Under the pieces are notes generated by a model that had not been told where the DNA came from, searched no databases, and worked only from the letters and a program-made list of their open reading frames with translations. This document shows, piece by piece, positions 2,445 through 60,762 of a DNA stretch of 62,404 nucleotides (position 1 is the stretch's first letter; each line of letters starts with the position of its first letter). The translations under genes and the position numbers were made by a program. This stretch comes from a virus, in IMG/VR virus record IMGVR_UViG_3300037507_000835, positions 1 to 62,404 of that record; one strand, written 5' to 3'.

Positions 2445-2474
2445 GGGTTTCTCCTAAGATGCTGTCGTGCCGCT

Positions 2475-2513
2475 CTTATTGTGGTTGTTAACGTAGTGCA
2501 GGCACTACGATTG
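2475..2513. repeat. 39-bp direct repeat, copy 1
   Basis: This stretch is identical to 2867-2905. It contains the 18-bp palindrome CGTAGTGCAGGCACTACG and the flank TTGTGGTTGTTAA. Here the repeat overlaps the last codons (IVVPALR and stop) of the gene at 2488-2850. In the second copy the same bases supply the stop of the next gene. The unit looks like a duplicated regulatory block that has been absorbed into coding sequence. Confidence 0.85.
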
Positions 2514-5795: not shown

Positions 5796-6284
5796 ATGGA
5801 CACAAACATCCTGAACTTCATCTGGACCACAGATAGACCAATTGCCGACTTATGGAATGCAGCCTGCTGCGATCCAGACTTTATTACGGCCAATGAATTA
5901 GACCCCTCGTCAACGTCAGATGACGAACGCGAAGCTCGCGCCATTGTTTTCCAAACACCTTCCGCGCCCGCTAAACCATCAACCCCCGGTGCTGCCAATG
6001 CGGTACGTCGGTTACTGCAGCGATACGATTTCTCTATGGCAGATGAGTCTGCCCGATTACGTACCTATGCCATCTCACGTTTACTTGACCTTGCTGAAAG
6101 CGAGAAAGAGAATATAGCCCTAGGTGCTATAGAGAAGATCGGTAAGATTGCCGAGGTAGGACTTTTCGAGACTAAGATCACTGTCGACATCAATAAAAAA
6201 CCCACTGATGAGCTAGAGAAGGACTTACAGTCCTTGTTAGGTAAGTACATGAACGAGCTGAAGGTTATCAACCCTGATGACTAA
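5796..6284 (+). CDS. terS: Small terminase subunit (putative, 162 aa)
   Basis: By position (directly before and overlapping the large subunit) and size this is the DNA-recognition subunit of packaging. The middle (about residues 65-115) is helical with RRLLQRYDFSM and RLRTYAISRLLDLAESEKEN, then EKIGKIAEVGLFETKI, a pattern of small terminase oligomerisation regions. The C-terminal tail is acidic. No clear helix-turn-helix is visible. No good ribosome-binding site precedes the ATG. The stop overlaps the next start. Confidence 0.65.
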   Translation: MDTNILNFIWTTDRPIADLWNAACCDPDFITANELDPSSTSDDEREARAIVFQTPSAPAKPSTPGAANAVRRLLQRYDFSMADESARLRTYAISRLLDLAESEKENIALGAIEKIGKIAEVGLFETKITVDINKKPTDELEKDLQSLLGKYMNELKVINPDD

Positions 6285-7155
6285 TATTGCACCTAACATT
6301 CTCCTACAGATGTCTGAGACAGACAGGATAAAAGCCTTAGAGCTTTTGTCAGAGATTGAGAGTCGCAAAAAACGTGAAGCAGCCCAGAAAGACTTTCTTG
6401 AGTTTGTTAAGGTGATGTGGCCTGAGTTTATTCACGGATCACACCATGCGAAGATGGCTAGAGCGTTTGAGCGGGTAGCAAAAGGGGAGCTTAAACGGTT
6501 AATAGTATGTCTTGCACCTAGACACACGAAGTCTGAATTTGCATCATACCTACTTCCAGCGTGGTATTTAGGGCTACACCCGAACAGACAAATCATGCAG
6601 CTTTCACATACGGCAGACCTAGCTGAAGGGTTTGGTCGTAAAGTAAGGAACTTGGTTGACTCTGATTTGTACCACACGATATTTCCTGATACACGCCTGC
6701 GACGTGACTCAACTGCTGCAGCTCGATGGAATACGGACAAGAATGGTGTCTATATCGCGATGGGTGTTGGTGGTGCGGTAGCAGGTAAAGGTGCTGACCT
6801 CTGTGTGAAGGTAGGGTCGTTAGTAAAAACACATAAGGGTTACACACCGATAGAACAAATAGAAGTAGGGGATTTGGTTTTAGCAGAGGAAGGGTATGTG
6901 ACTGTTTTGCATACACTGACGTCTGAATCTAGTATAGAGACACGTATTAACGGGGAATACACATTCACCCCAAACCACCCTATATGGACGAAAAACAGAG
7001 GGTGGGTACCTGCTGAAGAGGTAAAGCCGGGGGATATATTGACGATGACCCCACTAAGGGTTATCATAAAGTCTTATACACAAATGTGGAGACTACAATG
7101 GCTAAAGGTAAAACAGGTACTACATCACAACGTGAATACAATATTTGGGCGATGA
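6277..7155 (+). CDS. terL: Large terminase, N-terminal fragment fused to split-intein N half
   Basis: Residues 1-175 are the N-terminal part of the ATPase domain of the packaging motor, with a Walker A variant APRHTKSE at 80-87. At Cys176 an intein begins (CVKVGSLVKT...PIEQIEVGDLVLA), with the block B motif TPNHPIWT and then GWVPAEEVKPGDIL. The reading frame ends at 7155 inside the following endonuclease gene. The Walker B half of the enzyme is encoded separately from 7681. A full terminase therefore needs protein trans-splicing at Leu175/Cys176. This is the fractured-gene arrangement described by Dassa and colleagues in 2009. Confidence 0.85.
   Translation: MTNIAPNILLQMSETDRIKALELLSEIESRKKREAAQKDFLEFVKVMWPEFIHGSHHAKMARAFERVAKGELKRLIVCLAPRHTKSEFASYLLPAWYLGLHPNRQIMQLSHTADLAEGFGRKVRNLVDSDLYHTIFPDTRLRRDSTAAARWNTDKNGVYIAMGVGGAVAGKGADLCVKVGSLVKTHKGYTPIEQIEVGDLVLAEEGYVTVLHTLTSESSIETRINGEYTFTPNHPIWTKNRGWVPAEEVKPGDILTMTPLRVIIKSYTQMWRLQWLKVKQVLHHNVNTIFGR
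6802..7155 (+). other. Split intein, N-terminal half (IntN)
   Basis: Begins with the nucleophile Cys (TGT at 6802). Hint-domain blocks A and B are present through about codon 255 of the host frame. The last 23 codons overlap the endonuclease gene and probably are not part of the Hint fold. The insertion site is immediately before the Walker B aspartates. Confidence 0.85.
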
Positions 7156-7697
7156 TGCGGCAAAGATGCAATAACCCAAAGGCGGAAAACTACCCTAATT
7201 ATGGAGGTAAAGGGGTTTCTGTTGCAGATAGATGGGGTAGGTATTCTAATTTCTACGAAGATATGGGACCATGCCCAGATGAGTTCACACTTGATCGTAT
7301 AGATACTGCAGGGGACTATGAACCAAGTAACTGTCGTTGGGCGTCTAAAGAGACACAACAAAATAACAAGCGCAACACAATCCGTATAACAGTTTTTGGG
7401 GAAACACTAGGTATAGCACAATGGGTTAGGCGCACAGGCCTTACTAGGGATATGATCCACCACAGGATATATGTGATGGGAATGACACCAGAAGAAGCTA
7501 TACAAGCACCTAGGATGAGCCATGTTATCCGTAAAGTACATCAGTACACAAAAGAGGGTGAATTCATTGCTGAGTATCCATCATTAGGTGCAGCAGCTAA
7601 AGCCTTAGGTGTGGATAAACGGTCGATATATCCAGCTATAGCTGGAAAAGCAAAAACGGCTATAGGGTATAAGTGGAGTTATGCTGAAAAAGATTAA
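7098..7697 (+). CDS. Free-standing homing endonuclease inside the terminase (199 aa)
   Basis: The start at 7098 has GGAG six bases upstream, overlapping the end of the intein N half by 58 bases. The N-terminal domain has YNIWAMMRQRCNNP, NYGGKGVSVADRW, FTLDRIDTAGDYEPSNCRW and QQNNKR, a His-Me-finger-like nuclease family common in phages. The middle (TVFGETLGIAQWVRRTGL) and the C-terminal NUMOD1-like unit (HQYTKEGEFIAEYPSLGAA...GYKW) are DNA-binding parts. It is in a different frame from both terminase pieces. It should cut intein-free terminase genes and so spread the insertion. The stop overlaps the next start by 17 bases. Confidence 0.85.
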   Translation: MAKGKTGTTSQREYNIWAMMRQRCNNPKAENYPNYGGKGVSVADRWGRYSNFYEDMGPCPDEFTLDRIDTAGDYEPSNCRWASKETQQNNKRNTIRITVFGETLGIAQWVRRTGLTRDMIHHRIYVMGMTPEEAIQAPRMSHVIRKVHQYTKEGEFIAEYPSLGAAAKALGVDKRSIYPAIAGKAKTAIGYKWSYAEKD

Positions 7698-7842
7698 ACA
7701 GTTTTTTACCCGTGAAATCGTTGTAGAGACTGTAAATACAGTCTCTATACCATCAGAGATCTTTTACAATTTACATGTAAACGGTAGTAATACTTACTAC
7801 GTTGGTAACCCTACAAACAAGAGGTTAATTTTAACCCATAAT
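7681..7842 (+). other. Split intein, C-terminal half (IntC)
   Basis: 54 codons. Block F is IFYNLHVNGSNTYYVG and block G is LILTHN followed by Cys+1 (TGT at 7843). It has its own ATG at 7681 with GGAG two bases upstream. Confidence 0.85.
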
Positions 7843-8817
7843 TGTATCATCGATGACCCTTTAAGTGAACAAGAAGGTAAGAGTAACGACCCTAAAGTGT
7901 TTGATGCTGTGTATGATTACTATATGACAGGTCCTCGTCAGCGGTTACAGCCGGGCGGGGCTTTGATAGTGGTTATGACTCGATGGTCGAAAAGGGACTT
8001 AGTAGGGCGACTTATTGATAACATGATACGGAATCCAGACGGCGATCAATGGGAAGTGCTTGAGTTCCCTGCAATCTTACCAAGTGGGCAACCGGTATGG
8101 CCGGAGTTCTGGAAGCTTGAAGAGCTAGAGAAAACCAAGATCTCTCTGGATAACCGGTTCTGGCAAGCACAGTACCAACAGAACCCGACGTCCGAAGAAG
8201 GTGCGATTATCAAGCGTGAGTGGTGGAGAGTCTGGGATAGAGATGCACCACCTAATAATATCGAGTTCACACTACTGTCGTGGGATACCGCGTTCGAGAA
8301 GCATAACCGGGCTGACTACAGTGCGTTGACGGTGTGGGGTGTGTTTTATATAGAGGATGAGGAAGGGGTTTTACGCCCGAATATCATCCTGCTTGATGCT
8401 GTTAAGAAGCGTGTGGAGTTCCCAGAGCTAAAGGAGTGGGCATACGAGGCGTATCAAGAGTGGCAACCAGATAGTGTCATCATCGAGAAACGGGCTTCTG
8501 GTGCGTCATTAATACAAGAGTTGCGTCGTATGGGTGTGCCGGTGCAGGAGTACACGCCGACTAAAGGTAATGACAAGATTTCAAGACTTAACAGTGTGGC
8601 TGATATATTTGCATCGGGGTTCGTGTGGGCGCCGGAGGCAAGATGGGCTGATGAGCTGATAGATGACGTTGCCTCTTTCCCAGCAGGAACGCACGACGAC
8701 CTTGTCGATACAGTTTCACAAGCAATGCTAAGGTTCCGCCAAGGTGGGTTCATCGGCACAAAAATGGATGAACCGGAAGAGGAACATTACTTTAGACGAA
8801 AGGTGGCGTATTACTGA
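7681..8817 (+). CDS. terL: Large terminase, C-terminal fragment preceded by split-intein C half
   Basis: Residues 1-54 are the intein C half. The terminase resumes at Cys55 with CIIDDPLSEQEG, the Walker B motif. The RNase H-fold nuclease follows: SWDTAFEKHNRADYSA (first acidic residue), VIIEKRASGASLIQEL and HDDLVDTVSQAMLRF (last acidic pair). The spliced product would be 175 + 324 = 499 residues, a normal length for this enzyme. It cuts concatemeric DNA and drives it into the prohead. The stop overlaps the next ATG (ATGA). Confidence 0.88.
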   Translation: MLKKIKQFFTREIVVETVNTVSIPSEIFYNLHVNGSNTYYVGNPTNKRLILTHNCIIDDPLSEQEGKSNDPKVFDAVYDYYMTGPRQRLQPGGALIVVMTRWSKRDLVGRLIDNMIRNPDGDQWEVLEFPAILPSGQPVWPEFWKLEELEKTKISLDNRFWQAQYQQNPTSEEGAIIKREWWRVWDRDAPPNNIEFTLLSWDTAFEKHNRADYSALTVWGVFYIEDEEGVLRPNIILLDAVKKRVEFPELKEWAYEAYQEWQPDSVIIEKRASGASLIQELRRMGVPVQEYTPTKGNDKISRLNSVADIFASGFVWAPEARWADELIDDVASFPAGTHDDLVDTVSQAMLRFRQGGFIGTKMDEPEEEHYFRRKVAYY

Positions 8818-9083
8818 TGACTATAGCAGAGAGAATTGTGAGTTACTTTGAGACTCGAGCGCGGATAAAGCAGATGCGTAAAACGCTAGAGAGTGAGACT
8901 GCGGCTATCCCACAAGATGCAAAGGTACCAACAGATTTTGAAGCCGTTCGTATGGTATATGAAGTTAACACTGAAGGTGTTGTTGATTTGAGCAATATAA
9001 TAGAGGAATTGATACAAGATAATCCCGAATTGTATAGAGTGCATTTTAAAGGTATAAACACGAGACAAAACACAACTACTTGA
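8817..9083 (+). CDS. Small hypothetical protein (88 aa)
   Basis: Starts with ATGA overlap on terL. The N-terminal helix is basic (IVSYFETRARIKQMRKTLE), the rest acidic with VDLSNIIEELIQDNPELY. No family recognised. Small proteins at this place between terminase and portal are common; the role is unknown. Confidence 0.65.
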   Translation: MTIAERIVSYFETRARIKQMRKTLESETAAIPQDAKVPTDFEAVRMVYEVNTEGVVDLSNIIEELIQDNPELYRVHFKGINTRQNTTT

Positions 9084-59374: not shown

Positions 59375-59625
59375 TTGGTTTTTCCTATGAAATTATCTAA
59401 TGCTGCATTACAGGCTTCTTGTTTGGTTTTGTGTATGCCGTGGTAACTATTAGTTTCCCCCTCTTTTAATGTATATAGCGGTGTTGTGCCTGTGTATATA
59501 TCCATCCATGAGGTTCTACGCTCATCTACCTGCGCCCACCACAACCCAGTTGTCGTACTCTGGACGTAGAACATATTTACGCCCATCACCGTTAATATCG
59601 CTTCAATCTCCTCTATGGATCTCAT
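59371..59625 (-). CDS. Small hypothetical protein (84 aa)
   Basis: RSIEEIEAILTVMGVNMFYV, YHGIHKTKQEACNAALDNFI. Same plan as 61797-62009 (IDTILHMLGYRYHYS start). ATGA overlap with both neighbours. Confidence 0.6.
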   Translation of the reverse strand: MRSIEEIEAILTVMGVNMFYVQSTTTGLWWAQVDERRTSWMDIYTGTTPLYTLKEGETNSYHGIHKTKQEACNAALDNFIGKTK

Positions 59626-60740
59626 ATATACACCGTCACACCTACCGGTGGAACACAGCTCTTGTTGTCAACTATCGCCCACAACACAGGACATGACCAT
59701 TGACCAAAACCGTCATACAGATAACCGTCAGTGAAGTTGATGACTGCAACAGGATTAAGTTGCTGCTGTTTGATGTATTCCGTTACGCATGTAACACTTG
59801 TGCCGCCACCACCCGCAGGTTTTAGTTTAGCTATCATGTTGTCGTACTCGTCAGGCATAAAGATGTCGTGCTTCTGCACGATAGTGTCCCACCACAACAA
59901 ATGGACACGCTCAGGTGGTGATGTCTTGACGATACCCACCAGCTCGCTAAGGAACCGTGATAGCGTAGCGTCGTCAATACTACCTGATGTATCTATACCA
60001 ATGACCAACTCACCGACCGACTCGGCCATCGTTGACGGCATATAGAGACCCTGCGCTAGGTAGCGTCGGTTTGGTTTACGCCATGTGGCGTAATCTTTAC
60101 CCTGCACAACAGTATGGATAAAATCCTGCAAGACCTGCTTCCAGTCAATCTTAGGCTCGGTGATGTCAGTGAATGATCTCGGTATGTTACCTTTGATTTT
60201 GCCTGCCAGTATCTGACCTTGACGTATGGCCGCATCAATCTCGCGTTCAAGCGCTTGGCCATCCATATCCTGCGCCCCCTCAAAATCGTGCTCATCAAAT
60301 GAAGAGCCGGTACCAGTGCCTTCCTGCATTAGCTTTTGGTATACCTGATAGGTGTCCATACCTTGATATTGTTTGTCTATACACCCACCCTCAGGTAATG
60401 CTACGTCTGGGTGAATACTAATAATCTCTAGGTTGATGACATAGTCCATCGCCATGTTGAGCACCTGCTTGTTCTCTAGGTGTCGCCATAACCAGATTTG
60501 GCGATATGCTTTATGTAAGGCTTCGTGCAGCACGAGACCTCGTAGCTCTTGGTCAGTTAACTTGGTGACGAAGTCAGGGTTGTATATGACGTTAAGTCCG
60601 TCAGTTGCCGCAGTGGGTACCTCGTCTGATAGCGATACTCTACCTACCATCAACAGTCCAGCAAATGCTGCTGTCTCGGGTTGTGACATGAGCCACACAT
60701 GTGTGCGCTCGATACGTTGCTTGGGTGTGTAGTTATTCAT
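59622..60740 (-). CDS. VWA-domain metallopeptidase-like protein (DUF2201-type, 372 aa)
   Basis: LVLHEALHKAYRQIWLWR has HExxH (72-76), a zinc-site pattern in the N-terminal domain. The C-terminal domain has VIGIDTSGSIDDATL (DxSGS, residues 250-254, a metal-binding MIDAS), then LLWWDTIV, AGGGGTSV and AVINFTDGYL. This is the DUF2201-type partner of MoxR ATPases, which remodel or load metal-dependent targets. ATG at 60740 follows GGAG. Confidence 0.83.
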   Translation of the reverse strand: MNNYTPKQRIERTHVWLMSQPETAAFAGLLMVGRVSLSDEVPTAATDGLNVIYNPDFVTKLTDQELRGLVLHEALHKAYRQIWLWRHLENKQVLNMAMDYVINLEIISIHPDVALPEGGCIDKQYQGMDTYQVYQKLMQEGTGTGSSFDEHDFEGAQDMDGQALEREIDAAIRQGQILAGKIKGNIPRSFTDITEPKIDWKQVLQDFIHTVVQGKDYATWRKPNRRYLAQGLYMPSTMAESVGELVIGIDTSGSIDDATLSRFLSELVGIVKTSPPERVHLLWWDTIVQKHDIFMPDEYDNMIAKLKPAGGGGTSVTCVTEYIKQQQLNPVAVINFTDGYLYDGFGQWSCPVLWAIVDNKSCVPPVGVTVYI

Positions 60741-60762
60741 TGGTTTCTCCAATAGATGCTAA

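What the first reader, a model, noticed from the sequence alone, without database searches (positions are those of the whole stretch)
6277..8817. Fractured terminase: split intein with a homing endonuclease between its halves
The large terminase is encoded in two pieces. IntN starts at Cys (nt 6802) and IntC ends in HN before Cys+1 (nt 7843), exactly ahead of the Walker B aspartates. A separate nuclease gene in another frame with its own ribosome-binding site lies between them and overlaps both. The exteins join to a normal 499-residue enzyme. The arrangement agrees with the fractured genes known from metagenomes (Dassa et al. 2009). The endonuclease here appears to be of the DRID...NCRW/NUMOD1 type rather than the Vsr-like type I recall from those reports. 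Packaging would depend on trans-splicing.
Basis: partly seen in the sequence, partly recalled or inferred. Interest (0 to 1): 0.88.

Follow-up and report, generated by a model that had tools for sequence, protein, structure and literature searches.

The report
Split terminase intein around a nuclease
A phage's DNA-packaging motor gene is cut in two by a mobile element made of two self-splicing protein halves with a DNA-cutting enzyme gene between them; related phages carry the same enzyme gene hidden in another reading frame of an unbroken self-splicing element, which suggests how such split genes arise.

Summary
TerL is encoded in two pieces (6277-7155, 7681-8817) that end and begin in the halves of a class-1-type intein (Cys1 at 6802, His-Asn before Cys+1 at 7843). 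An HNH/NUMOD1 endonuclease gene (7098-7697), in another frame with its own Shine-Dalgarno, overlaps both pieces.

The strongest evidence is natural. Vacant alleles in IMG/VR lack exactly nt 6802-7842 (1041 bp). Vacant L002 encodes the identical 499-residue TerL, with 34 synonymous and 0 nonsynonymous codon differences. Two other contigs carry the occupied allele, and L036 has the same geometry at 41-63% identity, so a read-level frameshift is excluded.

The unexpected result is the sister clade. In about ten further lineages, at this or a neighbouring TerL position, the intein is one continuous open frame and the HNH gene is nested inside it in a different frame. That frame has 0 stops; 0 of 199 pyrimidine-ending codons that could create a stop use T, against 46% elsewhere (P about 1e-45). 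Split and free-standing homologues show no such bias. The frame in which the nuclease sits seems to decide whether the intein is split or stays whole.

The window locus is a new variant of the known 'fractured gene'. The dual-frame inteins appear unreported in the papers searched. Splicing and homing are inferred.

The parts
6277..6801 (+). TerL N-extein (175 aa, ATPase N part)
   Evidence: phrog_38/phrog_4758; identical to the uninterrupted L002 protein
6802..7155 (+). IntN (117 aa) and stop TGA 7153-7155; Cys1 at 6802; block B TPNH
   Evidence: Hint_2 in Pfam; PDB Pho RadA, NrdJ-1 and gp41-1 inteins; alignment A3. The TGA comes from the ATGATG (Met-Met) of the nuclease gene
7088..7091 (+). 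Shine-Dalgarno GGAG of the nuclease gene
   Evidence: sequence; SD-like sequence upstream of nearly all related nuclease starts
7098..7697 (+). HNH homing endonuclease gene (199 aa), +2 frame relative to the intein
   Evidence: phrog_3377; Foldseek best hit I-HmuI 1u3e E 6.9e-5
7533..7631 (+). NUMOD1 DNA-binding module of the nuclease (residues 146-178)
   Evidence: Pfam PF07453, 30.5 bits, cut-off 22.8
7098..7155 (+). 58-nt overlap of IntN with the nuclease gene
   Evidence: coordinates; 58 nt also in L036, 46 nt in L053
7681..7842 (+). IntC (54 aa) with its own ATG, which is formed by TATG of a nuclease Tyr codon; ends THN
7843..8817 (+). TerL C-extein from Cys+1 (324 aa; rest of ATPase and RNase H-like nuclease)
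   Evidence: Terminase_6C 5.7e-12; phrog_38
6802..7842 (+). whole mobile insert, 1041 bp
   Evidence: exactly absent from vacant alleles L002, L003, L004, L018

Best explanation
The 1041-bp insert is a mobile, naturally split intein module in TerL. SHOWN from sequence: it sits exactly between two codons of TerL, vacant alleles exist, the joined exteins equal the vacant protein, the splicing residues are present, and an HNH/NUMOD1 endonuclease gene separates the two intein halves and overlaps both. INFERRED: three polypeptides are made from one transcript. TerL-N~IntN and IntC~TerL-C associate and trans-splice to 499-aa TerL. The endonuclease cuts the vacant site in co-infecting relatives and the insert is copied in by break repair. 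Architecture follows from the frame of the nuclease. In the frame found here, the nuclease's Met-Met motif gives a TGA that ends IntN, and a nuclease codon boundary near its end supplies the IntC ATG, so the intein must be split. In the sister clade the nuclease lies in the other frame, the intein frame has been kept free of stops, and the intein stays whole as a cis-splicing intein with an overprinted nuclease gene.
For: Exact vacant alleles L002/L003/L004/L018, 96-98% nt identical in the flanks; window exteins joined = L002 TerL, 34 syn: 0 nonsyn. Hint residues C1, [TS]xxH and HN|C are kept in nearly all split and whole relatives. AlphaFold of the whole relative L041 gives a confident Hint core (1-83, 285-323) around a disordered linker, best PDB match gp41-1 intein. 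Nuclease model best match I-HmuI. The same split geometry recurs in L036 and, with an unrelated nuclease and intein, in L053, whose flanks are about 95% identical to L036. IntN ends at the Met-Met TGA in all three. Nuclease tree: window+L036 (99/95) sister to the whole-intein clade (98/91), jointly 100/99; L053 and L127 arise elsewhere. Dual-frame selection: 0/199 hazard codons use T; synonymous-shuffle P about 0.02 or less at each tested locus, mostly 0/5000.
Against: No experiment. The IntC start has only a poorly spaced Shine-Dalgarno. Block F His is Asn (GSNTYY) in most members. IntN and IntC could not be modelled together here. Nuclease activity and target are untested. Vacant Cys+1 alleles could be either targets or scars of loss.
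Confidence: 0.9

Rival explanations
1. One long bifunctional intein (IntN-nuclease-IntC) whose frames are broken by sequencing errors or joined by two programmed frameshifts.
For: IntN and IntC share a frame and the insert is a multiple of 3 (1041 bp).
Against: Needs two shifts. Three contigs are identical. L036 shows the same geometry at 62% nuclease identity. The nuclease has its own Shine-Dalgarno and ATG. The sister clade carries the nuclease in a different frame with an open intein frame.
Confidence: 0.03
2. A decayed intein: the TerL halves are made separately and act without splicing, or the gene is dead.
For: No splicing assay; IntC initiation signal is weak.
Against: Catalytic residues intact in two diverged split relatives. 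Exteins are at 0 nonsynonymous differences from vacant L002. TerL is essential in tailed phages (general knowledge). The split falls inside the Hint fold, leaving about 117-aa and 54-aa extensions at the ATPase core.
Confidence: 0.06
3. A self-splicing intron with an intron-encoded endonuclease.
For: HNH endonucleases of this kind are common in phage introns (general knowledge); the insert is precise.
Against: No Rfam match up to E = 5 on either strand of 6100-9000. Both coding ends carry intein blocks ending in HN|C. Relatives keep an open protein frame through the insert.
Confidence: 0.01

Closest known systems
Fractured genes with split inteins and a free endonuclease gene between the halves (Dassa et al. 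2009, NAR 37:2560; known to me by citation and general knowledge, text not held)
   Same: Host gene cut in two at an intein, the endonuclease gene in between
   Different: Nuclease is HNH/NUMOD1 I-HmuI-like here; as I recall, that report's nuclease family was Vsr-like/EDxHD. TerL Walker B site with vacant alleles, and a sister clade with whole inteins.
PolB split intein of Pseudomonas phage MIJ3 (PMC6892783)
   Same: Split phage intein with an HNH endonuclease ORF (orf154) between the two gene pieces (orfs 153, 155)
   Different: Different host gene; no vacant alleles or alternative architecture described in the passages read
GOS-TerL and AceL-TerL natural split inteins (PMC11766414)
   Same: Naturally split inteins of phage TerL from metagenomes
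   Different: Those are atypically split (IntN 37 and 25 aa, IntC 115 and 104 aa). Here the split is at the usual endonuclease position (117 and 54 aa), with the endonuclease gene in between.
ShiLan domain, out-of-frame HNH in a phage methylase (PMC11855218)
   Same: HNH gene hidden in another frame of an insert that keeps the host frame open, as in the sister clade
   Different: ShiLan has no splicing domains and no detectable ribosome-binding site. The dual-frame TerL elements are true inteins and have Shine-Dalgarno sequences. The window itself is split, with 13 stops.
I-HmuI, HNH homing endonuclease (PDB 1u3e)
   Same: Best fold match of the nuclease model (E 6.9e-5); NUMOD-type DNA-binding tail
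   Different: I-HmuI is encoded in a group I intron (general knowledge); here DRID...NCRW stands in place of the usual HNH motif letters

Membership tests
Intein (class 1) | Cys/Ser at position 1, block B TxxH, terminal His-Asn, Cys/Ser/Thr at +1 | tested here: met
   C1, TPNH, THN, C+1
Intein (class 1) | Hint fold | tested here: inconclusive
   Modelled only for whole relative L041, confident Hint, best PDB match gp41-1; for the window, only sequence matches
Intein (class 1) | Precise insertion: exteins joined equal an intein-free allele | tested here: met
   L002 protein identical, 500 = 500 letters including stop
Intein (class 1) | Protein splicing activity | not testable with these tools
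   needs expression and mass spectrometry
Fractured gene (split intein plus HEG between halves) | Host gene in two ORFs, each carrying one intein half | tested here: met
Fractured gene (split intein plus HEG between halves) | Free-standing endonuclease ORF between the halves | tested here: met
   7098-7697, own SD
HNH homing endonuclease (I-HmuI type) | HNH fold plus NUMOD module | tested here: met
   phrog_3377, NUMOD1, Foldseek 1u3e
HNH homing endonuclease (I-HmuI type) | Cleaves the vacant allele | not testable with these tools
   needs cleavage assay
Vsr-like/EDxHD endonuclease | Vsr-type catalytic domain | tested here: not met
   Profile and fold hits are HNH/NUMOD only
Dual-frame (ShiLan-like) hidden HNH | Host frame open through the HNH gene | tested here: not met
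   13 stops in the window and 11 in L036; met in the sister clade L037-L047, L058, L121-L126 and in the separate case L127
Self-splicing intron | Rfam group I or II match | tested here: not met
   no match up to E = 5

The most novel reading that the evidence does not exclude
There is an unrecognised kind of mobile intein in which the homing endonuclease is not a domain of the intein but a separate gene overprinted in another reading frame (once, in E. coli phage BUCT618, apparently on the opposite strand). The window's split intein is the other outcome of the same conflict: the frame of the nuclease decides between splitting the host gene and overprinting it.
Probability: 0.75. Interest if true: 0.85.

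Novelty: new variant of a known kind. Interest (0 to 1): 0.76.

Why it matters
It is an essential viral gene caught with vacant, split (two unrelated modules) and overprinted-intein alleles in relatives. That makes the origin of split inteins testable: a nuclease gene in one frame fractures the host, in the other it is carried silently. It also shows strong dual-frame coding selection, offers new natural split inteins at a conserved ATPase site, and warns that inteins with long 'linkers' may hide endonuclease genes.

Tried and rejected
Intron: no Rfam match. Frameshifted single ORF: rejected by replicate contigs and L036. Vsr-type nuclease: no support. Close relatives in cultured phages: none found; tblastn with the L041 and L044 intein N-parts gave no match, and the TerL best hits listed are mostly uninterrupted. 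Bacterial genomes: the nuclease scan gave related HNH genes but no other TerL intein; L189 is a ShiLan-like case in a large phage protein. L143, L172 and L180 have a short open alternate frame that is not part of a host protein. Pseudomonas phage Aurca01 'RecB' is a misannotated HNH gene. Literature on an out-of-frame endonuclease inside an intein: only papers on out-of-frame HNH in phage methylases found. Direction of change (split to whole or the reverse) could not be rooted.

Full report
What is in the window. TerL-N plus IntN runs 6277-7155, an HNH/NUMOD1 nuclease 7098-7697, and IntC plus TerL-C 7681-8817. Profile searches place the outer pieces in the TerL families and the middle piece in HNH endonuclease families. 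IntN resembles solved inteins (Pho RadA, NrdJ-1, gp41-1). The record is an IMG/VR virus contig. Portal, head, tail, primase/helicase and polymerase genes show an ordinary tailed phage.

Natural vacant alleles. A scan of IMG/VR with TerL-N returned the occupied allele twice more at 100% (L001, L005) and four vacant alleles (L002, L003, L004, L018) at 98-100% protein identity. At DNA level the vacant alleles lack exactly nt 6802-7842, with TerL flanks about 96-98% identical. The vacant L002 gene encodes the same 499-aa protein as the joined exteins, with 34 synonymous and no nonsynonymous codon differences. So the insert is precise and recently gained or lost, and the joined product is under purifying selection. 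Inteins do this; introns would too, but no intron RNA is detected and the coding ends carry intein blocks.

Related inserts. Scans with the nuclease and with IntC plus TerL-C found more occupied alleles. L036 is split with the same geometry: 58-nt overlap at the front, and an IntC ATG inside the nuclease gene. L053 is split with an unrelated nuclease and intein, although its flanks are about 95% identical to L036; one site in close relatives has thus received two different modules. In all three split loci IntN ends at a TGA formed by a Met-Met pair of the nuclease. In the window and L036 the IntC ATG is formed across a nuclease Tyr codon (TATG).

Whole inteins with an out-of-frame nuclease. 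In L037/L038, L039/L121, L040, L041/L042, L043, L044-L047, L058/L122, L123 and L124-L126, IntN and IntC lie in one open frame with no stop, and the nuclease is nested in another frame, always the same one, nearly always after a Shine-Dalgarno-like sequence. L127 shows the same in another TerL family, at another site, with a nuclease of separate origin. Insertion positions differ: GADL|C in most, one codon later in L123/L124, about six codons later in L043-L047.

Is the open frame more than chance? With the nuclease protein and its codons kept and synonymous codons shuffled, 3-11 stops are expected in the intein frame; each whole locus has 0 (P from 0/5000 to 0.02). The same frame in the split loci holds 25, 26 and 34 stops. 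In 98 nuclease homologues outside the TerL-site clade (some redundant) the median is 8.8 stops per 100 codons, and the only two with none are L222 (= L127) and L189, both nested in long ORFs. Among codons where a T-ending synonym would create a stop, whole loci use T 0 times in 199, against 46% elsewhere (Fisher 9e-46); split loci 76% against 69% and free-standing ones 47% against 47% show no bias. In close pairs the nuclease frame has dN/dS of about 0.08-0.25 and the intein-frame linker about 1-1.8 (crude for overlapping frames; the pair L045/L046, with six differences, is uninformative). So both frames are used: the nuclease as a protein, the intein frame only as an open linker. AlphaFold of L041 agrees: confident Hint core, disordered 84-284, nearest to the gp41-1 intein. 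The window nuclease model is nearest to I-HmuI.

History. In the nuclease tree window+L036 is sister to the whole-intein clade; L053 and L127 join free-standing nucleases. Splitting and overprinting have therefore each arisen at least twice. In the TerL tree, vacant alleles with Cys at +1 occur only in the three clades that also hold occupied alleles; the other vacant alleles have Leu or Ala. Either Cys+1 makes a gene receptive, or it is a scar of loss.

Reading. Frame decides outcome. In the window's frame the Met-Met TGA forces IntN to stop, so only a split intein can survive. In the other frame the intein can stay whole if stops are purged. Splicing, homing and expression remain untested. 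Dassa et al. 2009 could not be read here; statements about it are from general knowledge. The closest published precedent for a hidden HNH gene, ShiLan, lacks splicing domains.

Noticed in passing
L235:1384-3753 (Escherichia phage BUCT618, OM735461.1): TerL of a cultured E. coli phage seems to hold a whole intein (Cys1...SN|CIIIDDP; Pfam Intein_splicing below cut-off) with a 223-aa NUMOD4+HNH_3 gene on the opposite strand inside it (2101-2772); it uses no TTA/CTA/TCA codon, P about 0.0005.
   Followed up: partly
L189:4902-10052 (Hyphomicrobiales MAG): An HNH gene with a stop-free alternate frame inside a 1716-aa ORF, beside a second HNH; ShiLan-like, no intein seen.
   Followed up: partly
L019-L032: Viral contigs with distant intein N-parts (32-60% identity), often two about 1.7 kb apart; host genes not identified.
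   Followed up: no
L036 and L053: Phages about 95% identical around TerL carry unrelated split-intein/nuclease modules at the same position; L054 and L055 are vacant kin.
   Followed up: yes
window 59622-60752 (-): A second HNH endonuclease-like gene (phrog_1314, 376 aa) far from TerL.
   Followed up: no
window 2474-2513 and 2866-2905: A 40-bp perfect repeat seen in the self-comparison with L001.
   Followed up: no
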